A stretch of 53,836 bases of DNA from a virus, in the IMG/VR virus record IMGVR_UViG_3300045257_000186, positions 1 to 53,836 of that record. One strand, written 5' to 3'. The position numbers and the translations under genes were made by a program. Below the pieces are notes generated by a model. The model was not told the origin of the DNA. It ran no database searches and saw only the letters and a program-made list of their open reading frames with translations. Of the stretch, positions 9,555 through 53,430 are shown piece after piece; the stretch's first letter is position 1, and every line of letters begins with the position of its first letter.

Positions 9555-12469
9555 TGGCCGCTCCGATAATTACAACGCTGTTCCCGACTAGCGGGCCTGC
9601 AATCGGCGGCACGAGCGTCAATATCGGCGGCACGTTCAATCCGGTCGCCACGGCTGTTACCTTCGGCGGCATCGCGGCCACGATCACGACCGCGTTTCTC
9701 GGCGAGACTATCGTAACCACGCCGCCGCACGCTGCCGGCACCGTCGATGTGGTCGTGACAAACGCCGATGGCAGCACGACCGACCCTGGCGCTTACACCT
9801 ATACCTCCATACCGCCGACCGTTACTCATATCGACCCCCCGACCGGGACGGCCGTGGGCGGGGCGGCCGTCGGGATCACCGGCACCAATTTCGACCAGGG
9901 CGTAACCGGCGTCACCGTCGGCGGTGTCCCGGCAACCGGTATCCTCTTCGTCGACGCAGAGCACTTGATTGCGTTCACTGGCGCGCACGTGGCTGGGGTC
10001 GTCGACGTTGCGGTGACAACGGAGGCGGGAAGCGGCGTGGGGACCGGTCTCTACACCTATACGATCCCGCCGGTCCCGGCCTGGAACGTCTATCTGTTCG
10101 ATGATTGCTGCCACCTATGGGTCTCGCACGATACCGGCGGGACCTATGTGGAGAGCGCCACGCCGTTTCCCGGCGACAATCTCGCCAACGTCGGCACGCT
10201 AGAGGACCCTTGGTCCGATTTGCTGATGGCCATCAATGATGGCGACTACAGTACGATGTGGGGCGTCGACAATCAGTATAATTTCGGCGGGTTTGGCATC
10301 TTTGCCGTGTCCAAGCAGCAGGGGGCAAATGATACTTGGACCTTGATCGATCCCGAACCCGGAACGCCGGCGGCCACCGATAACCAGGATTTCTTTACCG
10401 AGCATGTTTCCGGCGCTTTCAGCGCTAACGGTGTGTTGCTTTCTCTGCCCAACAAGTTTTTTGATAACGTCAACGGTACCGGCCCGTTCTATCCGCGCAT
10501 TTCACGCGACAACGGCGCGACGTGGAACGATCTCACCGCCTTGGGGGCAAACATCGCGTGGTCGCGTGGTTGTTTCAGCGCCAATGCGGTAACAATGTAC
10601 GCCAAGCCGTCGGGCGATAGCAGCATTGCAGGCGATAGCACCCCTACCGCCACCATCCTCAACCCGGCCTATCTGTTCAAAAGCGTCAACAGCGGCGCGT
10701 CATGGACGCAATTGGGGAGCGGTCCAAGCTTTAACGGTACAACCACAGCGGCCGATTATGAAGGCCAGATGCGGCTGCGGTGCAGCAAAAACGGCCAGAT
10801 TGTCGCCATGGTCAATGTCGGCGGCGTGTTCTGGTGGTCGACCGATGGTGGTGCTTCGTGGAGTAACAAGGACTTCAACGGATTTTTCCCTGACGCCATA
10901 ACCACCGGGACCAAGGGCGCAGCCGACTTCGGCATGTCCGACGACGGACAGACATTCATTGTTGGTTTTACGACCGCTACAGACACCAAAGCTGGTGTTG
11001 CGCTTTCCCTCAACGGCGGCATTTCATGGAACTTAGTTTCACTTAAAAATCCATCTGCGAAAATTATGAATTTCCGAGCCTGCAACACCTTCACTGACGG
11101 TGTTGCGATGGTGGTTACTGGCCAATTTGAGGATTTTCTTATTCACGGTCCGGACCACGACGTCTGCCTGATGTATGCCAATGTGTCGATAGATTCCGGC
11201 GCTACTTGGACGCTGACAGCCTATTTTGCCGACCAAGACCAGAACAGTTCCACGCTCGGCTTCTTTACCTCGCTCTTTATGGTGCCGCAGACAGCGCCGC
11301 CTAACCCATTTATGGCGCCTCGGGCCGGCTACATCATCGAGCGGCTGGACAATCGACTGTGGCCGACCGTCGAGGATTGCTGGTGCGTGGACTGTGGTTT
11401 CACCAATTTCAAGCCGACGCCAGCCGCCACGCTCTTTGCCACCTCCACTACCGGAGCCGGCATTATCACCGGGGTTACGAACCTGATCGGTGGCCAGAAC
11501 TACTCGGCGGCGACAACGGTGCAGGTGGTCGACGACGATGGCTTGGGTTTCGGCTCCGGCGCGATCGCGATCCCGACCATTACCGCCGGCGTCATAACCG
11601 CGATCAATTTCCTTCCCGGCGGCTCCGGCTACGTCTACCCGCAGCTCGTCTTTAACGATCCGGAGAATACCGGCAGCGGCGCCAGCGCGACCGTAGCCCT
11701 GGACAACTCCATGACGTTCACGGCCGATGCGCCGGTCTTTGCGGTCGGCGACATCGGCAGCGTGATCCGGGCCGGCGACGGCGTTGCCGTCATCACCGCA
11801 TTCGTCAACAGCCAGCAGGTGACGGCCAACCTTATTTCCCCGATCGCCGCCGCCCGCCTTATCTTCGACGCCGGCACTTGGACGATGACCGCGCCGTTCG
11901 ACGCGCTCTACTTGCCAGCGCTGGTCGGCTTTACGATCACCGGCTTGGCCGATGGTCAGATCATTCCGCCAACTCTGGTGCCAGCAAACGGCATGGTCAC
12001 GCTGGCAACACCGGCCTCTGCCATCATTGTCGGCCTCGCGTTCCAGGCGCAATTGCAAAGCACCTATCTGGACGCCGGCGAGCCGACGGTGCAGGGCCAG
12101 CGCAAGAAGGTCGCCGAAGTCACGGTCCGCGTCGAGCAGAGCGCGGGCTTCCAGGTCGGCGCCAATCAACCGGACGGCTCGGTGCAGAGCCCGCAGGAAT
12201 TGTTCACGCTCTGGCAGAACATGGTCGCGGCGCCGACGCACGCAGTCGCGGCGTTCAATGCGCCGTTCACGCCCCTATTCACAGGCGACATTCGCGTGCC
12301 GATTCCTGGAGGCTGGAATACGCGCGGCCAGGTGGCCGTGCAGCAATTACAGCCGCTTCCATTGCAGGTACTAGACTACGTTCCTGAGACCCTTGGCGGC
12401 GATGACCCGGCGCAGAAGGCTCCGGCGCGCAGACAAAACCGGGGTGCCGCCACGGAAGGACAGCAATAA
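9554..12469 (+). CDS. Tail protein with IPT/TIG and BNR/Asp-box domains, 971 aa
   Basis: Residues ~5-83 and ~88-170 are two IPT/TIG immunoglobulin-like domains (SGPAIGGTSVNIGG..., TGTAVGGAAVGITGTNF). Residues ~190-560 contain Asp-box motifs of BNR beta-propellers: SRDNGATW (~314), SVNSGASW (~376), STDGGASW (~428), SLNGGISW (~485) and SIDSGATW (~545), plus a weaker SHDTGGTY at ~191. Sialidase-type propellers carry such boxes structurally; they do not by themselves prove glycosidase activity. The C-terminal third is beta-rich with a GGSGYVYPQLVFND-type repeat. The likely role is binding or degrading a surface polysaccharide. Coupled to the preceding small membrane gene through TAATG. Confidence 0.75.
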   Translation: MAAPIITTLFPTSGPAIGGTSVNIGGTFNPVATAVTFGGIAATITTAFLGETIVTTPPHAAGTVDVVVTNADGSTTDPGAYTYTSIPPTVTHIDPPTGTAVGGAAVGITGTNFDQGVTGVTVGGVPATGILFVDAEHLIAFTGAHVAGVVDVAVTTEAGSGVGTGLYTYTIPPVPAWNVYLFDDCCHLWVSHDTGGTYVESATPFPGDNLANVGTLEDPWSDLLMAINDGDYSTMWGVDNQYNFGGFGIFAVSKQQGANDTWTLIDPEPGTPAATDNQDFFTEHVSGAFSANGVLLSLPNKFFDNVNGTGPFYPRISRDNGATWNDLTALGANIAWSRGCFSANAVTMYAKPSGDSSIAGDSTPTATILNPAYLFKSVNSGASWTQLGSGPSFNGTTTAADYEGQMRLRCSKNGQIVAMVNVGGVFWWSTDGGASWSNKDFNGFFPDAITTGTKGAADFGMSDDGQTFIVGFTTATDTKAGVALSLNGGISWNLVSLKNPSAKIMNFRACNTFTDGVAMVVTGQFEDFLIHGPDHDVCLMYANVSIDSGATWTLTAYFADQDQNSSTLGFFTSLFMVPQTAPPNPFMAPRAGYIIERLDNRLWPTVEDCWCVDCGFTNFKPTPAATLFATSTTGAGIITGVTNLIGGQNYSAATTVQVVDDDGLGFGSGAIAIPTITAGVITAINFLPGGSGYVYPQLVFNDPENTGSGASATVALDNSMTFTADAPVFAVGDIGSVIRAGDGVAVITAFVNSQQVTANLISPIAAARLIFDAGTWTMTAPFDALYLPALVGFTITGLADGQIIPPTLVPANGMVTLATPASAIIVGLAFQAQLQSTYLDAGEPTVQGQRKKVAEVTVRVEQSAGFQVGANQPDGSVQSPQELFTLWQNMVAAPTHAVAAFNAPFTPLFTGDIRVPIPGGWNTRGQVAVQQLQPLPLQVLDYVPETLGGDDPAQKAPARRQNRGAATEGQQ

Positions 12470-20633: not shown

Positions 20634-22563
<1,930 letters not shown>

Positions 22564-32418: not shown

Positions 32419-33513
32419 TCAATTACGACCCCACCATGCCGGCATTTCCGCCAAATCCAATTCTTCTGGGGGGTCCAAGATCAGCCACATCTCGTTGGGG
32501 CCGAATTTGTCCATGAATGCGCGATAATTATCCGCCGCCTGATCGAGTGCGCGGCGCGCAACCTCGAGGATCGGGTTTGCAGGACTCAGGATGCGCGACC
32601 ACGTGACCGGTGCGCCCTCGCTCTGGAAAAACACCCATTGCCAGCCGAATTCTTTAGCCGCGGCGCATTTCTTTAAGAAAGCGAAAAGATCGATCGCGTT
32701 CGGAGGATTAAACCGCCCTTCGGCCATGAATTGCGGAATCATCGCCCGCGCCTCCATGTAGTGCGCCGCCTGTATTTCCATCCGACGTTGGGCAATGGCA
32801 ATCCGGCAGGCGGCCGGGAAAGCGAGTTCTCTGGTGTTGGCGATGCTTTTGAGATCGCCGATACCGCGCGGTTTAAGATAGTCGAGCCGCGCCTTGCGCC
32901 GCAGCCCGTCACGGGTCCAAAAGATCGAGATCTCGGGAAGCCCGCCGGTGAAGGCAGGCGCGAGCTTGGGGTTCTTGCTAATCATGGCCGACGCGATTAC
33001 GACGCGATCATAAGTCTCGGAGGGCAGTACCTCTTTCCCCATCTTTTCAGCTTCGGCATTGATCCGCTTGGTCTCTGCCGCCTTCTCAGACGACGGTGCG
33101 CCTTCCATCCAATCGCGCCCCCGCATATACCGCGCACTAAATGCCGCCTCGCCCTCCAGCACCATTTTGTGCATCGCCCGCCCGCGGAGCGTGGCTGGCG
33201 TGTCCCTGTCCTTCGGCCGCTGCGGGTTCATCGGGCTTTCCCACCAGAACGTAGCTGCGTTATCGACCAGCTTCCTCATGTCGGAACTACCCAAGGCGCT
33301 GTCAGCCCGATAAATCTCTTCGTCTAAATCCAGGTAAATGCCGTCCACGAGCGGCTCGACGTTGCCACCCATAGACGTGCCCGTAACCGCCGCCACTTCT
33401 TTCATTACATCTCCTATGTCTCCAGGTGATCTACCGTAGGGCGGCGGATAAGGGCCCGGCTCACCCATTAAATCACGGAACGCTTTGTTCAACCGCTCTT
33501 GGTCAATGGTCAT
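32419..33513 (-). CDS. RecE/ExoVIII-like PD-(D/E)xK exonuclease, 364 aa
   Basis: After an N-terminal extension the protein shows the family hallmarks: SALGSSDMRKL (residue ~72), TLRGRAMHKMVLEG with H115, then LDYLKPRGIGDLKS with D211, D220 and K222 as the PD-(D/E)xK centre, and RRMEIQAAHYMEA with Q248/Y252. It should resect duplex ends 5' to 3' and hand single strands to the annealing protein. I start it at 33513, overlapping the preceding stop (ATGA); the longer open frame reads through the upstream gene. Confidence 0.75.
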   Translation of the reverse strand: MTIDQERLNKAFRDLMGEPGPYPPPYGRSPGDIGDVMKEVAAVTGTSMGGNVEPLVDGIYLDLDEEIYRADSALGSSDMRKLVDNAATFWWESPMNPQRPKDRDTPATLRGRAMHKMVLEGEAAFSARYMRGRDWMEGAPSSEKAAETKRINAEAEKMGKEVLPSETYDRVVIASAMISKNPKLAPAFTGGLPEISIFWTRDGLRRKARLDYLKPRGIGDLKSIANTRELAFPAACRIAIAQRRMEIQAAHYMEARAMIPQFMAEGRFNPPNAIDLFAFLKKCAAAKEFGWQWVFFQSEGAPVTWSRILSPANPILEVARRALDQAADNYRAFMDKFGPNEMWLILDPPEELDLAEMPAWWGRN

Positions 33514-33719
33514 GCCGTGGCCGCCTTTACCGCCCACATGGCGGCATCTTCGTAAGCGTCCTGCGCTAAATCGATTATGTGGAGTTTCACACTTGTCGCA
33601 CCCCCTCTCATTCCCTCGCACAAATCGATCAATTCAGCCGATTTCTGCTTAATCTGGCTCACGAGTGAATTGTCAGACGGATTGAATTTAACGCGAACGC
33701 GGTCCTCGCCGATGGTCAT
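33510..33719 (-). CDS. acb2: Acb2-like anti-CBASS cyclic-nucleotide sponge, 69 aa
   Basis: The protein is a helical hairpin with the family marks VKFNPSDNSLVSQIKQKSAE and the C-terminal EDAAMWAVKAAT (E57-T68), which I know from phage Acb2/Tad1-hairpin proteins. Acb2 forms a hexamer that binds CBASS cyclic di- and trinucleotides and stops effector activation. AGGAGC precedes the ATG. It is the first gene of the leftward operon, so it would be made earliest, fitting an anti-defence role. The assignment rests on motif recall, not on a search. Confidence 0.65.
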   Translation of the reverse strand: MTIGEDRVRVKFNPSDNSLVSQIKQKSAELIDLCEGMRGGATSVKLHIIDLAQDAYEDAAMWAVKAATA

Positions 33720-33804: not shown

Positions 33805-33867
33805 AGTGTTGACACCCTCTTTCCGGACCTATTTTGTGGCGTGCCCAAAGAAAAGGAGGGGGTGCAG

Positions 33868-34452
33868 ATGCAGAATGTTTGGCTCGAAAGCCAGATTGAA
33901 ACCATGAAACAAATGTTCAAAGATGGGTTTTCTCACGCACAAATTGGCCGATCGGTCGGCCGATCCCGCAATGCGGTTATCGGCAAAGTACACCGCATGG
34001 GGCTGCACATCGAGGGCCAAGAGCAGGGATACCGGCCGAAACCCCAGGGCGGCCGCGTCAGTTCCAAGTCCGCGATCAAACGACCGCGCAGCAAAGGGCG
34101 GCCGCAAGTCGGACGTTGCGAGCCGCTTCCTGAGACCCCTACCGCCCCGGATTCCAAATTCATCTCGCTCATCGAGCTTAGCCGGGGAACGTGCCATTTC
34201 CCGTATGGCGACCCGCAGGAGCCCGATTTTAGCTATTGTGGTGCGCCGGTCTGGGGTAAATCATCGTACTGCGCTTCTCACGCGCGGCTTTGTTACACCA
34301 CGGCGGCCGAGCGCCGGGCCGAGCGGGCGCAATACCAGGAGGAACCGACATGGGACGCAAGCCGAAAACTGATCCGCAAGCGCCGGGCGCGGACGCCGAG
34401 AGGCCGGGCGCAGGGCACAACCAGCTCTCCGACGACGACCTCCGAGAGTTAG
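33868..34452 (+). CDS. gcrA: GcrA family cell-cycle regulator
   Basis: The N-terminus is the GcrA DNA-binding helix-turn-helix: VWLESQIETMKQMFKDGFSH and SRNAVIGKVHRMGLH (residues 33-47). The C-terminal sigma-binding part is present too: GTCHFPYGDPQEPDFSYCGA and YCASHARLCY. GcrA binds sigma70 and activates promoters with CcrM-methylated GANTC in alphaproteobacteria. Start chosen at ATG 33868 after AAAAGGAGGGGG. The last ~35 residues (basic, then Ser/Thr-rich) are beyond the family end and overlap the next gene by 103 bases. The phage copy may redirect host polymerase or respond to its methylation state. Confidence 0.85.
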   Translation: MQNVWLESQIETMKQMFKDGFSHAQIGRSVGRSRNAVIGKVHRMGLHIEGQEQGYRPKPQGGRVSSKSAIKRPRSKGRPQVGRCEPLPETPTAPDSKFISLIELSRGTCHFPYGDPQEPDFSYCGAPVWGKSSYCASHARLCYTTAAERRAERAQYQEEPTWDASRKLIRKRRARTPRGRAQGTTSSPTTTSES

Positions 34453-38316: not shown

Positions 38317-38342
38317 GCGGCCAGGGCGGCAATCCTGGCCGC
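38317..38342 (-). promoter_or_regulatory. Hairpin with CGGCAA in the loop, 9-bp stem
   Basis: GCGGCCAGG, loop GCGGCAAT, CCTGGCCGC: a perfect nine-pair stem between two convergent transcripts, just after the stop of the last leftward gene. Its loop contains the CGGCAA shared with the hairpins at 39387, 39669, 39903 and 40508. Confidence 0.55.
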
Positions 38343-38355
38343 TGCCCAAAGTCAG

Positions 38356-38565
38356 CTAATCTTCGGGCCGCTTCCTGACAGAATAGTGGAAGTCTGCGAT
38401 TACCGCGTGCACGCGGATATTTTTGCGGTGGCTCTCATTGAGCCGCGCGCATTCCCGATCGGCCTCGCGCCTGGTCGGATAGAGGACAACGCGGCCCTTA
38501 GCTTTGAGCCAGTCCTGTCGGTCGCCGCTAGGGCCGGAGACTTCGCACCAAATCGCAAACCGCAT
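38356..38565 (-). CDS. Small protein, 69 aa, paralogue of 39693-39890
   Basis: MRFAIWCEVSGPSGDRQDWL matches MFAIWCQVSGGVTGHREAWL of the 39693-39890 protein, and both continue with a basic helix and end in a Y-YSxxK motif (ADFHYSVRK versus ADYYYSAHK). This points to a recent duplication of a small cytoplasmic beta-alpha protein in the operon. Function unknown. Confidence 0.55.
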   Translation of the reverse strand: MRFAIWCEVSGPSGDRQDWLKAKGRVVLYPTRREADRECARLNESHRKNIRVHAVIADFHYSVRKRPED

Positions 38566-38566
38566 T

Positions 38567-38692
38567 TTAGTGCCACCCGATGGGCGGGATTAGATACCAC
38601 AACAAAGCGTAGTATGTGCCCCAATAAAAGCAGGCAAGGAGCAGAACTAGGAGCACCGCTACGGGAAAGCGCCACCACATTCCTTCGTTCAT
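38567..38692 (-). CDS. Tiny membrane protein, 41 aa
   Basis: The start overlaps the preceding stop (ATGA). MNEGMWWRFPVAVLLVLLLA followed by CFYWGTYYALLWYLIPP: one long or two short hydrophobic segments rich in Trp/Tyr. Stop and next start are one base apart. Function unknown. Confidence 0.5.
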   Translation of the reverse strand: MNEGMWWRFPVAVLLVLLLACFYWGTYYALLWYLIPPIGWH

Positions 38693-38907
38693 GCTATCAC
38701 GCAACGCGGCCGCCGACATGGCTCGCGGTCTGATTTGCGGTTAGGATCGGGCAAGGTCATGTCCGGCATGATAAGCCCGTCCGCTGGCGCCCAACGTTCG
38801 GCAAACGTAGGGACCGGCGCTTGCGGCGCCGGCCAGAGGGTAAGCCCGAGGGCTATTCCAGCCGCTAATGCGGCGGCTGCAATGAGGGGTTTGGCGGTCA
38901 CAATCAT
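38689..38907 (-). CDS. Exported or membrane-anchored small protein, 72 aa
   Basis: MIVTAKPLIAAAALAAGIAL gives an N-terminal hydrophobic segment; the remainder is Pro/Arg-rich and polar (TLPDPNRKSDREPCRRPRC). I use ATG 38907, which overlaps the preceding stop; ATG 38913 is equally possible. Coupled on both sides by ATGA overlaps. Confidence 0.5.
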   Translation of the reverse strand: MIVTAKPLIAAAALAAGIALGLTLWPAPQAPVPTFAERWAPADGLIMPDMTLPDPNRKSDREPCRRPRCVIA

Positions 38908-39374
38908 AACCATCGTTGCTTGAGAGCGTAGCCCGCTCCGGCAAACCATTCATTGCTCGGCGTGGTCCAATCCGGCTTTTCTTTTTTGCCGCCTTGGTGC
39001 CAGTAGAATTTGTCAGCTTCGTAGATCGCCTTGCGTAAAGCGTTCGCGGCCTTGCCCTTCCCGTTCTTTGCCTCTTCGCCGAAAAGTGCATACCCAAGGC
39101 TGTGAACGACATGGAAACCCATGTCCATTCCGCAGCCCCCGACTCGCATTCCATCGCCGCGTCGTGCGCGCGGGTAGCCAAGTAGCACCGACACAGCCCA
39201 ATTAGGGTGTAGTGCCTCGCCATCGCGCAAAATAACCACGCGAATGTCGCGCGACATGCCGGACCTAGAAACATTATCGACAATCGTATGGACTGTATCG
39301 CCTGGTTTCAGCCATTTCCGCAGATTGGCAAAAGCTTGTTCGCGGTCCGCTTTGCTGTACTTGCTCATTTTCAT
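38904..39374 (-). CDS. Conserved phage protein, 156 aa
   Basis: LKPGDTVHTIVDNVSRSGMS, then RDIRVVILRDGE, MRVGGCGMDMGFHVVHSLGY and a Lys-rich tail with FYWHQGGKKEKPDW. The SRSGMSR and GGCGMDMGF motifs mark a widespread phage family of unknown function. Start at ATG 39374 after AAGGGGA, behind a CGGCAG-loop hairpin. Confidence 0.6.
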   Translation of the reverse strand: MKMSKYSKADREQAFANLRKWLKPGDTVHTIVDNVSRSGMSRDIRVVILRDGEALHPNWAVSVLLGYPRARRGDGMRVGGCGMDMGFHVVHSLGYALFGEEAKNGKGKAANALRKAIYEADKFYWHQGGKKEKPDWTTPSNEWFAGAGYALKQRWL

Positions 39375-39386
39375 TCCCCTTGTGTT

Positions 39387-39402
39387 GCGCTCGGCAGAGC
39401 GC
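39387..39402 (-). promoter_or_regulatory. Leader hairpin E1, loop CGGCAG
   Basis: GCGCT, loop CGGCAG, AGCGC on the + strand (sense loop CTGCCG). It lies 12 bases before the start of the 38904-39374 gene and is followed in the sense direction by AACACAAGGGGA. A second hairpin, CGGCA-TGAT-TGCCG, follows at about 39403-39416. Confidence 0.6.
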
Positions 39403-39467
39403 CGGCATGATTGCCGTTCTAGCCAATGTCTGACCCGCGCGCGCGGCATTGGCTAGGGCTGCAATCC

Positions 39468-39647
39468 TTAGCGGCTCGAGTGTCGCAGCGGAGTTACCTT
39501 TGCACTTTCCCGCTCAATGCGCCGCTCAACGCGGGCAATGCGGGCTAGGTGTTCCAGGCGATCACGGAGCCTGGATTGGTACCGCGCCAGTCTTATCGCC
39601 CGGTCCAATCGCGCCAGCTCCGCGTCATTGTAGAAACTATGAGGCAT
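39468..39647 (-). CDS. Small basic helical protein, 59 aa
   Basis: ATG 39647 follows ACACAAGGGAGCCTAAA. The product (MPHSFYNDAELARLDRAIRL, then ARYQSRLRDRLEHLARIARV) is a single arginine-rich amphipathic helix, likely a dimerising nucleic-acid or protein-binding peptide. Preceded by hairpin E2. Confidence 0.55.
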   Translation of the reverse strand: MPHSFYNDAELARLDRAIRLARYQSRLRDRLEHLARIARVERRIERESAKVTPLRHSSR

Positions 39648-39668
39648 TTTAGGCTCCCTTGTGTTGTG

Positions 39669-39684
39669 GGCACGGCAATGCCCG
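39669..39684 (-). promoter_or_regulatory. Leader hairpin E2, loop CGGCAA
   Basis: GGGCA, loop CGGCAA, TGCCC. Sense direction: GGGCA TTGCCG TGCCC followed by ACAACACAAGGGAG, the ribosome site of the 39468-39647 gene. Confidence 0.65.
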
Positions 39685-39692
39685 GTTGCAGA

Positions 39693-39890
39693 TTAGATTT
39701 TGTGTGCGGAATAGTAATAATCGGCCGTCCGGTATGGGGAGGCATTCCGATTTGTGGTTAGTTCCTTTGCTAACTTTTCGGCCTCTTGCAAAGACTCAAA
39801 GATTTGCCTTTTGCCGTTCCGTTTTAGCCATGCCTCGCGATGGCCAGTAACGCCCCCTGACACTTGGCACCATATTGCAAACATTGTCAT
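39693..39890 (-). CDS. Small protein, 65 aa, paralogue of 38356-38565
   Basis: Start chosen at 39890 (MTMFAIWCQVSGGVTGHREA) because ACACAAGGGGA stands directly before it and hairpin E3 just upstream. The body (LQEAEKLAKELTTNRNASPY) and the end ADYYYSAHKI match the paralogue. Function unknown. Confidence 0.6.
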   Translation of the reverse strand: MTMFAIWCQVSGGVTGHREAWLKRNGKRQIFESLQEAEKLAKELTTNRNASPYRTADYYYSAHKI

Positions 39891-39902
39891 TCCCCTTGTG
39901 TT

Positions 39903-39918
39903 GCGGCCGGCAAGCCGC
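39903..39918 (-). promoter_or_regulatory. Leader hairpin E3, loop CGGCAA
   Basis: GCGGC, loop CGGCAA, GCCGC. Sense: GCGGC TTGCCG GCCGC then AACACAAGGGGA, identical in the last 12 bases to the E1 downstream sequence. Confidence 0.65.
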
Positions 39919-39921
39919 GTT

Positions 39922-40134
39922 TCAAACCGGATCATTCCGGTTCGATTGGTGATAATTAAACTCAGCGTCCAATAGGGCGCCACGGAACCCAAGCCCATAG
40001 AGCACGGCGCGGAACACGACCGGGCTGATTTGAGTCGCGCGATATTGCGCCACAGCTACACCTAGCCTCCAATCCCATAGCGCGGCCGCGTCGGGATCGA
40101 TCTTGCTGCGCAGATAGGCGTCATAGTCAGGCAT
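39922..40134 (-). CDS. Small hypothetical protein, 70 aa
   Basis: Start at ATG 40134 after GGAGGGCGAAACG; the frame also opens at 40149 but that ATG lies inside the ribosome site. Sequence MPDYDAYLRSKIDPDAAALW, then VAVAQYRATQISPVVFRAVL and GFRGALLDAEFN: helical, soluble, no family recognised. Confidence 0.55.
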   Translation of the reverse strand: MPDYDAYLRSKIDPDAAALWDWRLGVAVAQYRATQISPVVFRAVLYGLGFRGALLDAEFNYHQSNRNDPV

Positions 40135-40155
40135 CGTTTCGCCCTCCATTAGAGA

Positions 40156-40179
40156 GGCGCGGTCGATTAAGACCGCGCC
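40156..40179 (-). promoter_or_regulatory. Intergenic hairpin, 9-bp stem, different loop
   Basis: GGCGCGGTC, loop GATTAA, GACCGCGCC. It sits before the ribosome site of the 39922-40134 gene in the same relative position as the CGGCAA hairpins but with an unrelated loop, so it is either a divergent member or an attenuator. Confidence 0.5.
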
Positions 40180-40185
40180 ATGATG

Positions 40186-40488
40186 TTAACCTTGCAGTTT
40201 AGGCGCAATCCAGCAGTCGAACGTTTGCTGTGCCGCTGCGAGTTCATCGGCTGTGAAGCGGTCACGGAAGGTAAGGGCGACCATGCACCAATCGCAGTCC
40301 TCTTCGAACCATCCTTCTAACCCTTGCTGATTAAAGCTTGCTCGTTTCCAAGCGTATGGAATGTCGGCAAGGATTTTGCGGCTTACCTTAAAACCGCCGT
40401 GCGACGGCGTGCTTACGAAATGGATATAACCGTCTGAGCCGCGTGGCTCGGAACTATCGGCATATCCCCAAGGGGTAGATTGTGACAT
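40186..40488 (-). CDS. DUF7007-like phage protein, 100 aa
   Basis: The pattern STPWGYADSSEPRGSDGYIH, FVSTPSHGGFKVSRK, then EDCDWCMVALTF matches a widespread phage domain I recall as DUF7007. It is the first gene of the leftward operon; hairpin E4 lies just upstream and CGAGAGGATTAA is its ribosome site. Cytoplasmic; role unknown. Confidence 0.6.
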   Translation of the reverse strand: MSQSTPWGYADSSEPRGSDGYIHFVSTPSHGGFKVSRKILADIPYAWKRASFNQQGLEGWFEEDCDWCMVALTFRDRFTADELAAAQQTFDCWIAPKLQG

Positions 40489-40507
40489 TTAATCCTCTCG
40501 TGTTTGA

Positions 40508-40525
40508 GCCGCGCGGCAACGCGGC
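40508..40525 (-). promoter_or_regulatory. Leader hairpin E4, loop CGGCAA
   Basis: GCCGCG, loop CGGCAA, CGCGGC: six pairs. Sense: GCCGCG TTGCCG CGCGGC then TCAAACACGAGAGGA before the 40488 start. Confidence 0.65.
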
Positions 40526-40789: not shown

Positions 40790-41401
40790 ATGGCGCTGGA
40801 AATCAGACGGCAAGAGATTTTCGCGTTTAACGTCGCTCACGGCAAAACACTGTCCGAAGCTTATGTAATTGCCGGATACGCAAAAAGCGCAGCAAACGCC
40901 TGCAATCTCGCTAAACGACCGGAAGTCGCCGCACGAATACAGGAAATCAGTGTCGAAATCGCAGAGGCAGCAAAAAGCCGGTCTATGGTCACAGCTGACC
41001 GTGTTTTGAGCGAATTGGCGCGCATCGGCTTTGCTGATGTGACGCAAGCCGTGCAGGTTAGGCGCGGACGCGTAAAGATCAAGGATACCGATGACTTAGC
41101 GCCAGACCTCCGCGCCGCGCTGTCTGAGATCAGGCAGGGGCGCGAGGGGACAACGGTAAAGTTCCATGATAAGGTTAGAGCGTTGGAATCATTGAGCAAA
41201 CACTTAGGACTGACGCGCGAAAACATTGACTTGAACGTGACCATTAGCCTGGTCGATCTAGTCAACGGCAGCTATGCCATCGAGCGGGGCGAGGTCCAGG
41301 CGCCGACCATTGAGCACCGGGCGGACGATGTTCCCCATGCGATCCCCAGCGATGAGCAGGCTACGTCTGACCCCAACAAGATCAACGACTTAGACCGCTA
41401 G
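40790..41401 (+). CDS. terS: Terminase small subunit
   Basis: 203 residues with the Terminase_2-type N-terminal helix-turn-helix (ETFAFNVAHGKT-like: IFAFNVAHGKTLSEAYVIAG, then NACNLAKRPEVAARIQEI), a middle part with VLSELARIGFADVTQAVQVR and FHDKVRALESLSKHLGL, typical of the family, and a disordered C-terminal tail. It binds the packaging site and loads the large subunit, encoded 2.6 kb downstream. The intervening tiny genes are an unusual insertion. Confidence 0.85.
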   Translation: MALEIRRQEIFAFNVAHGKTLSEAYVIAGYAKSAANACNLAKRPEVAARIQEISVEIAEAAKSRSMVTADRVLSELARIGFADVTQAVQVRRGRVKIKDTDDLAPDLRAALSEIRQGREGTTVKFHDKVRALESLSKHLGLTRENIDLNVTISLVDLVNGSYAIERGEVQAPTIEHRADDVPHAIPSDEQATSDPNKINDLDR

Positions 41402-46284: not shown

Positions 46285-47292
46285 ATGGTTGCGCCGATCA
46301 TTCCGAATATCGGGCCGCGAACGCTCACTACGCTCACCGGTAATGAACTCGTCTATCTCGAATATGGCTCTCAGGAGCTTCGGCGCATGAAGATATCGGA
46401 TTTGGCGGCTTATATTTTTAGTTGTCGAGCCGGGCCGACGGGGGCAACAGGCGCGACGGGGGCAACAGGCGCAACTGGTCCCGCCGCATATACCGTCAAG
46501 GCGACCCGCTTCGATGCAACCGGCACGGGGCCGAACGGCACCGGCGGCGACAACGGGACCATGATAGATTTGGCCTCCGACGCAGCGGTTGCAACGAGCG
46601 CGGCAACGGCAAGTTGGGCAGGCTGGATGAAGCTAGGAACTGCGCCCAAAAACGGTACCCAACTCTTCACCAGCGGCGCTATTTTTACCAATTCGGCTGG
46701 CACGTTTTATCTCTCGAGCACCACCTTCAACGTCGTCGCCAACCCGACAGACCTTTACGACAGCTTTAACCAGAATAGCCCGGCCGCGTACTACCCCGCC
46801 GCGTCGCAAGCTGGTGTGCTATCGGAAAATACTTGGTGCTGGCTGGCCGGCAATGCCGACGTCGGCCATGCCGCAGGAGCGCGGACCAATCTGCAATATC
46901 TGGGCGATACCGCCGTTGTGATGACCAGTGCGTTTTCCGGCAATACGGAGACCGGCTCTGCGTTCGTTATTCCGTTCGCCGGCGGCAAAACCGAAATCTC
47001 GGCCTCCTTGGGAGCGGTCATTGATTTTGCCGAGTTGTTCCTGTGGCCCGGTCAGTTGATCGATTGGAGCCAAGTTAGCAACCGGCGCCTGCTCTTCGGC
47101 GCCAACGGCAAGCCGGTCAACCCAGCTGGAGCGATCTCAGCATTTGGTGCGCCTGCGGTTTTCCTCAGCGGCGGTGCAGCGAGTTTCGTCACAAACCAAG
47201 GCAACGGTGGCACGTTCTCACTTTATAAGAACCTTAATACTCCTGCCCTTGGCGGCGTATTATCCGACGCGCCAACCAGCCCGAGCGATTAA
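46285..47292 (+). CDS. Fibre-module protein with LamG-like domain, 335 aa
   Basis: Module VAPIIPNIGPRTLTTLTGNE, VYLEYGSQELRRMKISDLAA, then a short GATG run (residues ~50-68) and a 265-residue beta domain with DFAELFLWPGQLIDWSQVSN, which resembles LamG/concanavalin-type carbohydrate-binding domains (compare 23080-23847). Closest to the mini fibre in its N-terminus. It should be a receptor-binding fibre with a short shaft. Confidence 0.7.
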   Translation: MVAPIIPNIGPRTLTTLTGNELVYLEYGSQELRRMKISDLAAYIFSCRAGPTGATGATGATGATGPAAYTVKATRFDATGTGPNGTGGDNGTMIDLASDAAVATSAATASWAGWMKLGTAPKNGTQLFTSGAIFTNSAGTFYLSSTTFNVVANPTDLYDSFNQNSPAAYYPAASQAGVLSENTWCWLAGNADVGHAAGARTNLQYLGDTAVVMTSAFSGNTETGSAFVIPFAGGKTEISASLGAVIDFAELFLWPGQLIDWSQVSNRRLLFGANGKPVNPAGAISAFGAPAVFLSGGAASFVTNQGNGGTFSLYKNLNTPALGGVLSDAPTSPSD

Positions 47293-47294
47293 CG

Positions 47295-47651
47295 ATGACG
47301 GCGAGCCGCGGCAACCAGATCGTCGACAAGCTACGCGGCGACGAACTGTTCTCGTGCGACAATGACGCCAAGAAGATCACGGCGCGCGATCTGCGCGCCT
47401 ATCTCGGCGGCGACCGCGCCGCACCGGCGATCCGGCCGGAAGGCGGCGCTCATCCGGTCCGGGCCAGCGAGTTCCCCAACGCCGAACACGCCATGCAGGA
47501 CGCCGACAGGATTTTAGGCTTGCAGGACGGGCTGAACGTCAATTTCTCCAAGGAACAAATCACCCGTCTTATTTTCCCGCCCACATTTGATCCGCACGTT
47601 CCCGGCGCGCTGTGGAACGACAACGGCACCCCGAAAATCTCCGAGGGATAA
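47295..47651 (+). CDS. Fibre-module family protein, 118 aa, no collagen
   Basis: [20 protein letters not shown] and [13 protein letters not shown] are the shared module, without a PVIPN lead-in. The middle matches 20630-20974 ([17 protein letters not shown]). The C-terminal end [20 protein letters not shown] reappears at the end of the next protein ([20 protein letters not shown]). A short adaptor or tip-bearing subunit. Confidence 0.65.
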
Positions 47652-47652
47652 C

Positions 47653-48405
47653 GTGGCGCAAGGTCCCGTCGACCGGATCGACACGCTCTACGGCGATGAG
47701 TTCTTCGTCGTCAGCGGCGATGGCTACGACCGCAAGCAAATAACCGCCGCCAACGTCAAACGCTTCCTCCGCGGCGGCGCAACCGGTGCCACCGGGCCGA
47801 TGGGGCCGACCGGAGCTACCGCAGGCAATACCGGCGCAACAGGCACGAAAGGCGATCCCGGCAAGCCAGGCAATACCGGCGCTGCGGGGGCGACCGGTGC
47901 AGGTGAGCCAGGGCCGGCTGGCGCGACCGGTCACACAGGACCCAAGGGGGCCACAGGTCCGACAGGTCCGCACGGATCGGGCGAAACCGGGGCGATTGGC
48001 CCGCAAGGCAACACCGGCAACACCGGACCGCCTGGGCCGCCCGGTCGTGGCGATCCCGGCCCTAAGGGTGCGATCGGGATCGCAGGAGTGCCGGGATACG
48101 ATGGTGCAACCGGCGCAACCGGACCCGCCGGCACTACCGGGAATACCGGCGCACCCGGACCAGCAGGGTCCGCCGCGACAGGATCAGCCGGCAACACAGG
48201 AGCCACGGGACCAAAAGGGGACATCGGTTCGGGCGCGACAGGATCGACTGGCGCAACTGGCGTTGCGGGCAACACGGGCAACACCGGCCCGCCCGGCCCG
48301 CAGGGCGCGGCATGGGAAGGCCCGATCATCCCGCCCACATTTGATCCGCACATTCCCGGCGCGCTATGGAATAATGGCGGCGTCCCGATGATTTCAGCAG
48401 GCTAA
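47653..48405 (+). CDS. Collagen-like fibre-module protein, 250 aa
   Basis: GTG start after GAGGGATAAC, chosen over the longer open frame, which reads the preceding gene's end. Module [35 protein letters not shown], then ~175 residues of Gly-X-Y triplets including Pro-rich ones ([13 protein letters not shown] type), and the tip [20 protein letters not shown]. It has the most Pro/Lys-rich collagen of the set. Confidence 0.75.
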
Positions 48406-48407
48406 CG

Positions 48408-49949
48408 ATGCCCCCGCCCGTCATCCCGAACCCAGGTGTAGAGATCGTTACCGACCTGTTCGGCGATGAACTGTTCATCTTCGAGTCTGGGTCGCAGCAG
48501 ATCAAAGAGGTCACCGCCGCCAATCTCAAACGCTTCTGTGGCGGCGGCGGTACCGGCGACGGCAATACCGGAGCGACAGGGGCCACAGGCGCAACGGGAG
48601 CTACAGGCAACGACGGCAATACCGGGGCGACCGGGTTAACTGGCGTAAACGGCGTCACGGGAGCAACAGGCGCGGCTGGGACTACCGGCAGCACGGGTTC
48701 GACTGGGCCAACGGGCGCTGCCGGCACGACAGGAAGCACGGGGCCGACCGGGGCCGCCGGCCAAACCGGATCGACCGGCCCAACAGGCGCACAAGGTAAT
48801 ACTGGTAATACCGGGACCGCTGGCGCGAATGGCAATACCGGTGCCACCGGACCAACCGGTGCGGCAGGGCAGACCGGATCGACGGGTCCGACTGGCGCGC
48901 AAGGCAATACGGGGAACACTGGCGCTGCTGGCACCACCGGTTCGACTGGTTCGACAGGCCCCACGGGAGCCCAAGGAAATACGGGTAACACGGGTGGAAC
49001 AGGAGGCACCGGAGTCACCGGCAATACCGGTGGGACGGGTGGGACTGGCGCCACGGGAAATACCGGTGCCGCACAACCTTTCACTTGGAACTACTCGACG
49101 ACGACCACTATGGCGTCGCCCGGTACCGGGTTCTTCCGTGCCGACAACGCGACCTGGGCCAGCGTCGCTAATCTCGCGGTCATGGACACCACTGCGGACA
49201 CCGGCAATCCAGACGTTCACGCTTATCTGGAAGCCATCCCGGTCGGGTCAACGCTCTTCATCAAGGACATCACGACTCTTGGCGCGATCGCCATCTTTAC
49301 CGTCACCACCGTAACCCCGCAGGGCTCGCATACTTGGACCCAATACGCCGTCACCTTCGTCAGCCAAACCGGCACATTCACCAATAACGACAATTGCCAG
49401 ATTTCGTTTGCCGGGCCGAAGGGAAATACCGGAAACACGGGCGGGACCGGAGGAACCGGAGCGACTGGGAATACCGGGGCCGCCGGTACGACCGGCCCGA
49501 CGGGGGCTCAGGGTAATACGGGTGGCACAGGCGGAACTGGACAAACCGGGGCAGCGGGGACCACGGGACCGACCGGTGCGCAAGGAAACACGGGAAATAC
49601 GGGAGGAACCGGGGGCACCGGTGGGACTGGTGGCACTGGTGCTACCGGCGCCGGCTACGCCGTCGGCGCAACGGTCGATTTCAAGTTTTCCACCAAGATC
49701 AACGGCGTGCCGACAAGCCTGACTGGTTCTGCCGCGATCAGCGTGTACCAGGGCGGCAATTCTACGCCGTTCACGACAGGCGTTAGCTTGACGACGGACT
49801 ACAATAGCACCGTGGGATTGAATGACGTTTCGATCGGAGCGACCGGTGCTAATTATACCGCAGGCCATGACTACGACGTGGTGATTACCACGGGGACGGT
49901 CGGTGGTATAAGTCAGGTTGGGACAGTGGTGGGGCACTTTACGCTATGA
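48408..49949 (+). CDS. Collagen-like fibre protein with two shafts, 513 aa
   Basis: Module [40 protein letters not shown], then ~170 residues of Gly-X-Y, an internal ~110-residue beta domain ([20 protein letters not shown]), a second shaft of ~75 residues, and a C-terminal domain of ~95 residues ([40 protein letters not shown]) that reappears as a free protein at 51797-52138. Confidence 0.8.
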
Positions 49950-50875
49950 GCAATGTCAGCTTTCCGCTAACCGACGTCCAAGTCTTTACCAGCGGCTCAG
50001 GCAATTGGACTAAGCCGCAATGGGCGACGCTGGTGCAGGCGATCTGTGTTGGTGCGGGCGGTTCCGGCGGAGGGGGAACCTTTACCGCTACTGGAGCTAG
50101 TGGCACCGGCGGCGGCGGCGGCGGCGGCGCCGCGGCGCCGCTCATCGCGTTTTTCCAACCGTCGGACCTTGGGTCCACCGAAGCTTATGCTGTCGGTGCC
50201 GGCGCAATTGGCGGCACTGGAAGCACGGCCGGCACAGGCGCCTCGGGGACCAACGGCGGAAATTCGACTTTTGGCGGCACCACGGTAGCAATCCAGACAG
50301 CCTATGGCGGCGGCGGCGGCGGCGGCGGCACTATCGTCAGCGGCAGTGTTGGCGGCGGCGGCGCTGGCCTCGCTGGTGCCGGCTCGCAAGGTCAAATTTC
50401 CGCCGGAGGCGCCTCCGGTGCCAACGGCGGCGTTGGCGGTTCTGGAAACGGTAGTAGCGCTGGCACCAACATCGGCGGCGGCGGCGGTGGTAGCGTCAGC
50501 AGCGTGTCGCTTCTCGTAGTCACTCCATCGCCGGTTTTCACGGGGGCCGGCGGCGGTGGTGCCGGTGGTCCGAAAACGACAGTGCCGGCTTATGGTGCCG
50601 GCGGCACCGGAGCATCGATCAATAGTGTGTTGCCGGGTGGAGCGGGGGCGGCAGCTTCGACCGGAACGGTTGGCGGCCCCGGCCTCCCTGGACCGTTCGG
50701 AACTCCTGGCTCCGGGGGCGGCGGCGGAGGCGCGAGCGCAACTGTAGCCGGCAATGGCGGCGCGGGCGGTTATCCCGGCGGCGGCGGCGGCGGCGGCGGC
50801 TCGTCGATCACGACAGGAACTTCGGGGAATGGCGGTGCCGGAGCCAATGGCATTGTCGTTGTTATTTCGACATGA
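49946..50875 (+). CDS. Glycine-rich adhesin-like protein 1, 309 aa
   Basis: Opens with [20 protein letters not shown], the F-x-x-x-x-x-W-x-K-P entry of glycine-rich phage tail domains, followed by long Gly runs (GGGGGGG) interleaved with short strands ([20 protein letters not shown]). Such domains form poly-glycine sandwiches at adhesin tips, with receptor specificity set by the loops. The start overlaps the previous stop by four bases. Confidence 0.7.
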
Positions 50876-51796
50876 CCAACGCCGTTATTTTCCCCCGCAG
50901 CCACCTCGATAAATTCACGACCGGAACTGCTCAATCCTGGTCAAAAGTGAATTGGGCCAAAACCGTCAGGATCATTATGATCGGCGGCGGAGGTGCGGGC
51001 GGCGGCGGTCTTAGGAGCGGTGCAACAGGGAGTGGCGGCGGCGGCGGCGGCGGCGGTCTATTCCTCGACCGCACGTTTGCCGCGAGCCAATTGGGGACTA
51101 CCGAGACTTACACGGTTGGGGCCGCGGTTGTCGGCGGGGCGGGCGCTACCGGCGACACGCTGCCAGGAAACCAAGGTGCAACCGGCAGCTCAACGACTTT
51201 CACTATCGCCGGCCTCGGCATCACCATGACCGCCTACGGCGGCGGAGCCGGCGCGGGGGGCCAAGTAGGAGCAATCTCTGGCGGAGGTGGAGGCGCTGGG
51301 CGTGCCGGCGCAGGTGGCAGTGCCGTGACGTCGACGCAAGGCACAGCCGGTGCAGACGGTGGCGCTACAGGCGCGGTCGGCGGGGGTCCCAATCTCGACT
51401 TTAACGGCGGAGCCGGTGGGTGCAGCGGTCTCAATAGTGCCGCCGCGCCTACACAAGTTGGGCCTGTGGTTCGCGGCGGCGGCGGCGGCGGGGCTGGGTG
51501 TGGCAAAGGAACCGCCACGAATGGCACCGGCGCCACCGGCAACATTAGCCGCGACCAAGCAGGAGGCCTGCCCGGCGCCGCGGGTGTCAATGGCGGCACG
51601 GGAAAGCCGGGGTTTGGCTATCCCGGCAGCGGCGGCGGCGGTGGGGGTTCTGCCTCTGCGGCCGGCGGAACCGCCGGTGCTGGCGGCGACGGCGGCATCC
51701 CTGGCGGCGGCGGCGGCGGAGCCGGCGCAGGCGGCACAGGACATACCGGCGGGGCCGGTGGCACCGGAGCGAGGGGCGAGATTTGGGTTATCCAGT

Positions 51797-51804
<8 letters not shown>
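50872..51804 (+). CDS. Glycine-rich adhesin-like protein 2, 310 aa
   Basis: Paralogue of the preceding protein with the same length and layout: LDKFTTGTAQSWSKVNWAKT, IIMIGGGGAGGGG, TETYTVGAAVVGGAG. Loop sequences differ. The start overlaps by four bases, the end overlaps the next gene by eight. Two adjacent adhesins of equal length but different loops suggest two receptor specificities. Confidence 0.7.

Positions 51805-53430
<1,626 letters not shown>

What the first reader, a model, noticed from the sequence alone, without database searches (positions are those of the whole stretch)
38317..40525. Hairpin family with a fixed CGGCA(A/G) loop and different paired stems
Stems GCGCT/AGCGC, GGGCA/TGCCC, GCGGC/GCCGC and GCCGCG/CGCGGC all carry the loop CGGCA(A/G) (sense UUGCCG or CUGCCG) and stand just before the (A)ACAC(A)AGGGG-type ribosome sites of small leftward genes; a fifth copy with a nine-pair stem ends the operon. 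Stem sequences change but always pair: compensatory evidence for an RNA element read by its loop. A phage RNA-binding regulator, riboswitch-like control, or RNA processing would fit.
Basis: seen in the sequence. Interest (0 to 1): 0.8.

Follow-up and report, generated by a model that had tools for sequence, protein, structure and literature searches.

The report
Loop-conserved RNA hairpins before phage genes
A bacterial virus places small RNA hairpins with the same loop but different stems just in front of many of its genes, next to a larger, previously uncatalogued RNA structure that looks able to flip between two shapes, which points to a shared gene-control signal in many such viruses.

Summary
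Four minus-strand hairpins (loop UUGCCG or CUGCCG) end 18-20 nt before start codons; no other such hairpin occurs in the window and shuffles give 0.2 on average. A fifth, longer copy closes the operon. Contig G001 has 6 copies and the largely unrelated G004 has 3. Stems differ and covary (95.8% of cells paired, 48.2% after shuffling). In a loop-blind survey of 2.9 Mb, TTGCCG is the top start-associated loop (9 of its 11 hairpins).

It occurs in 22 phage contigs, up to 12 sense copies each, usually starting on the upstream stop codon and ending about 17 nt before the next start. Rfam lacks it.

Best reading: an operon-wide signal at translation initiation, read through loop or tail, whose larger form may sense ribosomes finishing the upstream gene. 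Reader and function are inferred; RNA processing is the main rival.

The parts
40508..40525 (-). hairpin 1, GCCGCG-UUGCCG-CGCGGC, leader of the first gene of the leftward operon (start codon at 40488)
39903..39918 (-). hairpin 2, GCGGC-UUGCCG-GCCGC, before gene 39693-39884
39668..39683 (-). hairpin 3, GGGCA-UUGCCG-UGCCC, before gene 39468-39647
39387..39402 (-). hairpin 4, GCGCU-CUGCCG-AGCGC, before gene 38904-39368, directly after the larger element
39403..39466 (-). larger intercistronic element: P1 GAUUGC/GCAAUC, A-G mismatch and G-C pair, covarying P2, tail AUGCCG able to form P3 (CGGC/GCCG) against P1
   Evidence: (58.3 bits)
38317..38342 (-). operon-end hairpin, GCGGCCAGG-AUUGCCGC-CCUGGCCGC, after the last gene (38356-38565); similar copy in G001 (11 bp)
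40156..40179 (-). 9-bp hairpin with unrelated loop UUAAUC at the same position before gene 39922-40134
40494..40503 (-). ribosome-site region ACACGAGAGG after hairpin 1
39892..39901 (-). ribosome-site region ACACAAGGGG after hairpin 2
39655..39664 (-). ribosome-site region ACACAAGGGA after hairpin 3
39376..39385 (-). ribosome-site region ACACAAGGGG after hairpin 4
40186..40488 (-). first gene of the operon, DUF7007 protein (100 aa)
   Evidence: PF22653, 1.1e-20
39922..40134 (-). small gene, homologue in G001 (51% identity)
39693..39884 (-). small gene after hairpin 2 (63 aa)
39468..39647 (-). small gene after hairpin 3; its stop codon begins 4 nt before the larger element
38904..39368 (-). gene after element plus hairpin 4 (154 aa, phrog_12365)

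Best explanation
The hairpins are cis-acting RNA signals at the translation initiation regions of one phage operon. Each presents a fixed Y-U-G-(C/G)-C-G loop on a stem whose sequence does not matter as long as it pairs. The foot of each hairpin lies at the upstream edge of the initiating ribosome, 17-22 nt before the start codon. A common reader, more likely a host protein or the ribosome than a phage protein, would recognise the loop and set initiation on all genes so marked (inferred). At some gene junctions the signal sits in, or next to, a larger element that begins on the upstream stop codon. A ribosome terminating there would cover the 5' strand of P1; the 3' strand would then be free to form P3 with the GCCG tail just before the ribosome site; once the ribosome leaves, P1 would re-form. 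So the larger element is best read as a two-state leader that reports translation of the upstream gene to the downstream one. Shown: hairpins, covariation, positions, alternative helices by sequence.
For: Covariation of hairpin stems with an invariant U-G-C-C-G in 13 of 13 copies (copies were collected by their loop). Fixed spacing: 12 of 13 copies 17-22 nt before a start with a ribosome site. Loop-blind ranking. Larger element: 51 of 52 copies have a start codon with ribosome site 11-52 nt downstream (random positions 22%), an upstream stop codon was found for 50 of 52 (random 42%), and in 38 of 52 the stop codon overlaps the element at offset -1 or -2. P2, which the search pattern did not select, has changes on both sides in 9 of 9 pairs. 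The tail NNGCCG, also not selected, is present in 22 of 24 distinct pattern matches whose helix pairs. Both mutually exclusive helices show compensation: P1 as GAUCGC/GCGAUC, GAAUGC/GCAUUC and AAUUGC/GCAAUU; P3 in 3 of 3 sense copies with altered sequence, all in G005 (CGAGC/GCUCG, CGGUGC/GCACCG, CGUGU/GCACG). Predicted energies of the two states differ by 2.7 kcal/mol on average; for the window the MFE shows P1 and the centroid shows P3.
Against: The operon-end copy (38317-38342; also G001) has no nearby gene start in the window, which a pure initiation signal does not explain. Four copies in G009 lack most of P3 (0-3 pairs), so a P3 switch is not universal. The P3 variants come from one contig only; otherwise GCCG and CGGC are invariant, which adds no covariation. 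No reader molecule is identified. Three window genes of the same operon (starts near 38907, 38689, 38565) have no hairpin, only overlapping or adjacent start and stop codons. One copy in G004 (10693) lies farther from a start. No expression data exist.
Confidence: 0.5

Rival explanations
1. RNA processing or stability: a host or phage nuclease, or a protecting protein, recognises the loop; each cistron is cut out or guarded at its 5' and 3' ends.
For: Copies flank the operon at the first gene, at junctions and at the 3' end. T4 CUUCGG hairpins of similar design are reported to stabilise mRNA (PMC8948821, passages read).
Against: The tight 17-22 nt spacing to the start codon (12 of 13) is not needed for cutting or end protection; the first-gene copy has no upstream cistron to be separated from. 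The end copies differ in loop length (8 nt) and are well supported in only two related contigs.
Confidence: 0.25
2. Plain structural insulator: any stable hairpin upstream of the ribosome site keeps it open; the common loop is only inheritance from duplicated intergenic DNA.
For: Other loops occur at the same place: UUAAUC in the window and several different loops after the larger element in other phages. The AACACAAGGGG context is shared between copies.
Against: Stems have changed on both sides at all six pairs while UGCCG has not changed in 13 copies collected by that loop; the same loop recurs in G004, which shares few genes with the window, and it tops the loop-blind ranking.
Confidence: 0.13
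3. Base-pairing signal: the loop UUGCCG pairs with the CGGCAA strand of the larger element in cis or trans.
For: UUGCCG is the exact complement of CGGCAA in P1/P3 of the element; the operon-end loop AUUGCCG extends this to 7 nt.
Against: In L250 and L252 the loop is UUGGCG while the element strand stays CGGCAA, without compensation; hairpin 4 has CUGCCG, which loses one pair.
Confidence: 0.07
4. DNA-level element: promoter, single-stranded hairpin promoter as in phage N4, or intrinsic terminator.
For: Hairpins lie upstream of genes in one orientation.
Against: No T run follows the hairpins; the largest ORF listed in the window is 1435 aa, too short for an N4-type virion RNA polymerase (size of that enzyme recalled). 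Double-strand recognition does not explain compensatory stem changes.
Confidence: 0.05

Closest known systems
T4 CUUCGG intercistronic hairpins (Tuerk et al. 1988, known here through PMC8948821, passages)
   Same: Fixed loop, variable complementary stems, mostly intergenic, many copies per phage
   Different: Loop is YUGSCG, not CUUCGG; copies keep a fixed distance to the start codon; linked to a larger two-helix element; hosts here appear alphaproteobacterial
SAS/ESAS of cluster K mycobacteriophages (PMC3203893, passages) and cluster EF Microbacterium phages (PMC7302621, passages)
   Same: Multi-copy elements at translation starts of non-structural genes; inverted repeats just upstream of the ribosome site; function unknown
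   Different: SAS/ESAS are defined by conserved primary sequence; here the stems vary with compensation and only the loop (or P1 and tail) is fixed
Phage translational operators, e.g. T4 gene 43 hairpin with UAAC loop (PMC3014915, passages)
   Same: Hairpin upstream of the ribosome site recognised partly by its loop
   Different: An operator of one gene, autoregulatory; here many genes share the signal
lambda boxB/nut (recalled)
   Same: Short RNA hairpin with a loop read by a protein and stems varying between phages
   Different: Acts on RNA polymerase with boxA; no placement at every ribosome site; not tested here beyond position and loop

Membership tests
T4-type CUUCGG hairpins | loop CUUCGG | tested here: not met
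   loops are UUGCCG, CUGCCG, in other phages UUGGCG
T4-type CUUCGG hairpins | variable complementary stems, intergenic | tested here: met
SAS/ESAS | near-invariant 13-nt sequence over the ribosome site | tested here: inconclusive
   AACACAAGGG recurs in three window copies, but it varies in G001 and G004 and is not enriched in the window
SAS/ESAS | inverted repeats of conserved sequence | tested here: not met
   hairpin stems differ in nearly all copies (12 distinct of 13 rows); P2 of the larger element varies freely
Known Rfam family | score above gathering threshold | tested here: not met
   no match in the window; no match over the elements at relaxed thresholds in 3 kb of the window or in six other loci
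Intrinsic terminator | hairpin followed by a run of T | tested here: not met
   sequence after each hairpin
N4-type single-strand hairpin promoter | giant virion RNA polymerase gene | tested here: not met
   largest ORF listed 1435 aa
Ligand-binding riboswitch | ligand-dependent structure change | not testable with these tools
   no ligand evidence; copies precede unrelated genes
Phage RNA-binding-protein operator | cognate protein binds the hairpin | not testable with these tools
   no protein family common to all seven contigs compared

The most novel reading that the evidence does not exclude
A phage-specific system of intercistronic RNA switches: the element overlaps the stop codon of one gene, flips between two evolutionarily supported helices according to whether a ribosome is finishing there, and passes that state to the next ribosome site, with a loop-coded hairpin as its constitutive form; many largely unrelated phages use it gene after gene through a host-encoded reader.
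Probability: 0.25. Interest if true: 0.88.

Novelty: new variant of a known kind. Interest (0 to 1): 0.7.

Why it matters
Recurrent start-associated motifs in phages have been described without a function (SAS/ESAS). Here compensatory changes show that RNA structure itself is under selection, and two mutually exclusive helices plus stop-codon overlap give a concrete, testable mechanism. The larger element is a candidate new RNA family, with a searchable covariance model, found in 22 phage contigs; the seven compared share few genes. It may also mark phages of alphaproteobacterial hosts: GcrA genes occur in the window and in 7 of 21 other carrier contigs.

Tried and rejected
Homologues of single window genes in other phages (L132-L135, L212) carry no such hairpin: the signal does not travel with one gene. 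A first loose pattern returned 120 stretches; scanning the L*.fa held then (L001-L003 skipped, 1.02 Mb) gave no YTGCCG hairpin of five or more Watson-Crick pairs. A stricter pattern gave 9 stretches; none of the 8 that one search scanned (L079 was scanned) had a start-associated copy. Bacterial genomes: 21 stretches matched the core pattern of the larger element, 0 of 21 with the NNGCCG tail; 0 of 397 genomes of the order of G023 matched the model, under strict filters and without a positive control. Isolated phages: no convincing copy by blastn, in Xanthomonas phage CP2 or in three GcrA-bearing Caulobacter/Brevundimonas phages. Four more isolates gave one weak match (20 bits) in Rhizobium phage RHph_X2_24 before an annotated gene; it has a long P3-like hairpin but no middle helix in the predicted fold, so I leave it as a lead. 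Two viral pattern matches (L239, L243) do not pair and were left out of A3. In the 52-copy context count I used matches of about 31 bits or more, left out antisense mirror matches, counted near-identical contig pairs (L246/L254, L249/L256, L221/L224) once, and left out weaker matches (for example L253:1882 and L241:3055, examined later). Of the 53 places I read five as antisense mirrors and two (L238 +9462, L077) as chance. Not found in print: searches (PMC open-licence papers only). Papers: passages of PMC3203893, PMC3014915, PMC7302621 and PMC8948821 were read; PMC4351075 and PMC6429828 were seen in search listings only.
Full report
WHAT IS THERE. The window is a 53,836-base virus record. 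A leftward operon of small genes lies between about 38.3 and 40.5 kb, divergent from a gene at 40790 that I take for the small terminase subunit (by position and by eye; not tested). Four hairpins with loop UUGCCG (three) or CUGCCG (one) stand before four of its genes, at 18-20 nt from the start codon with the ribosome site in between. A fifth, with nine pairs and loop AUUGCCGC, follows the last gene. No other hairpin of five or more Watson-Crick pairs with these loops occurs on either strand; 200 dinucleotide shuffles give 0.2 on average and never 4.

RELATIVES OF THE HAIRPINS. A homologue of the gene at 40790 (52% identity) led to contig G001 (locus L221). It has six copies in its matching operon, with 5' stems CGTTCGCA, GCACCC, GCGTCCC, TGCGCC, GTCCCC and GCGCT, again 17-19 nt before starts, and an operon-end copy with an 11-bp stem and loop AUUGCCGC. 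Contig G004 shares few genes with the window, yet has three copies, two of them 20 and 22 nt before starts. Over these 13 copies every one of six stem pairs has changes on both sides; 95.8% of cells pair against 48.2% after shuffling; the covariation score is 1.124 against 0.214 shuffled, and against at most 0.167 for slid partners. The loop was used to collect these copies, so I also ran a loop-blind survey: in 2.91 Mb of held DNA, 8081 distinct hexaloop hairpins include 226 start-associated ones. TTGCCG ranks first (9 of 11), TTGGCG is one of three loops that share the next count (3 of 7; L249, L250 and L252, all carriers of the larger element below), and CTGCCG has 2 of 3. The loci were partly chosen by related patterns, so this is not a random sample of phages. 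In one search, which also allowed TGGCG loops and G-U pairs, a few copies inside genes appear (for example window 48257, G004 31214); none of those precedes a start.

THE LARGER ELEMENT. Hairpin 4 follows a segment that is closely similar in G001. A pattern fixing only GATTGCAGCC and GAWCGGCAATC, with 16-46 free bases between, returned 24 viral stretches. Of 26 distinct matches, including the window, 24 show a long complementary stem in the free part; L239 and L243 do not. In an alignment of 39 copies, P2 has changes on both sides in 9 of 9 pairs and the whole structure pairs in 98.7% of cells against 75.7% after shuffling. P1 has two double changes and three G-U changes at one pair; its core was part of the search pattern, so its invariance is partly by selection. 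The model R1 finds the window copy at 58.3 bits. All 16 contigs searched whole matched, 15 of them strongly (G007 weakly), with up to 16 listed matches in a contig including antisense mirrors, 12 of them sense in G010. With the window, 22 contigs carry it; two pairs among them are near-identical in the region.

ANATOMY. Of 52 sense copies, 51 have a start codon with a ribosome site 11-52 nt downstream (random positions in the same loci: 22%), and for 50 of 52 an upstream reading frame ends nearby (random: 42%). The stop codon overlaps the first bases of the element in 38 of 52 (31 at offset -1; 7 at offset -2) (offsets counted by me from its rows). Where no hairpin intervenes, the element ends about 17 nt before the start; where one does, the hairpin ends there instead. 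The tail NNGCCG was not part of the search pattern and is present in 22 of 24. It can pair with CGGC of the P1 3' strand, forming P3 at the cost of P1.

TWO STATES. The folding model puts P1+P2 below P2+P3 by 2.7 kcal/mol on average (sd 1.6, range -9.4 to +0.7, 39 copies). In the window the MFE has P1 and the centroid has P3. Diverged copies show compensation in both helices: GAAUGC/GCAUUC and AAUUGC/GCAAUU in P1; CGAGC/GCUCG, CGGUGC/GCACCG and CGUGU/GCACG in P3. The three P3 variants are all from G005. Against universality, four G009 copies keep 0-3 P3 pairs.

WHO READS IT. GcrA, a regulator family of alphaproteobacteria (recalled), is encoded in the window and in 7 of 21 other carriers. In the phage collection all 19 records with a GcrA relative infect Caulobacter or Brevundimonas. 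This suggests alphaproteobacterial hosts for at least part of the carriers. Comparing seven contigs, no protein family was common to all (small or fast-changing proteins could be missed and contigs may be incomplete). I did not find the element in bacterial genomes, so it looks like a phage trait.

MECHANISM AND RANKING. I favour a signal at translation initiation, because the constant quantity is the distance to the start codon. The larger element adds a plausible sensing step, since a ribosome on the overlapping stop codon would cover P1. RNA processing is the main rival, because a copy also closes the operon. A passive insulator does not explain the fixed loop. Pairing between loop and element strand is attractive in the window but is contradicted by UUGGCG loops elsewhere.

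COMPARISON WITH THE LITERATURE. Fixed-loop, variable-stem hairpins in phage intergenic regions are known as CUUCGG hairpins (PMC8948821 citing Tuerk et al. 1988; passages). Multi-copy start-associated sequences with inverted repeats are known in actinobacterial phages without assigned function (PMC3203893, PMC7302621; passages). The present elements sit in the same place but fail defining sequence features of both. I therefore call them a new variant of a known kind, with the larger element a candidate new RNA family.

Noticed in passing
window 33510-33719 (-): Small protein with the Acb2/Tad1 hairpin domain (PF24729, 3.7e-8), a family of anti-defence sponges (function recalled); 69% identical over 71 residues to an ORF in G004.
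   Followed up: partly
window 33841-34452 (+): Phage-encoded GcrA cell-cycle regulator homologue (PF07750, 5.8e-33), a clue to an alphaproteobacterial host.
   Followed up: yes
window 38356-38565 and 39693-39884 (-): Two small genes of the operon look like paralogues by eye (both begin M(R)FAIWC.VSG); one has a hairpin before it, the other is directly adjacent to the gene upstream.
   Followed up: no
window 40156-40179 (-): Nine-pair hairpin with loop UUAAUC at the usual place before a start codon: same position, different loop.
   Followed up: partly
window 20971-22563 and 46285-53430 (+): Several genes with collagen-like glycine repeats sharing a similar N-terminus, probably tail-fibre type proteins.
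   Followed up: no
L338 2809-2861 (MW960031.1 24808-24860, -): Rhizobium phage RHph_X2_24 has CGGCUAUCAUGCCG, nearly the P3 sequence, inside a stem of about ten pairs 22 nt before an annotated CDS; weak model match (20 bits). A possible cultivable lead.
   Followed up: partly
L313 about 11600-11640 (G004, -): TGATTACAGCCC just before a ribosome site after a stop codon: looks like a decayed larger element.
   Followed up: no
L253 2799-2864 (-): In this copy the P3-side helix extends to 11 pairs including G-U and could reach the ribosome site, which would hide it.
   Followed up: no
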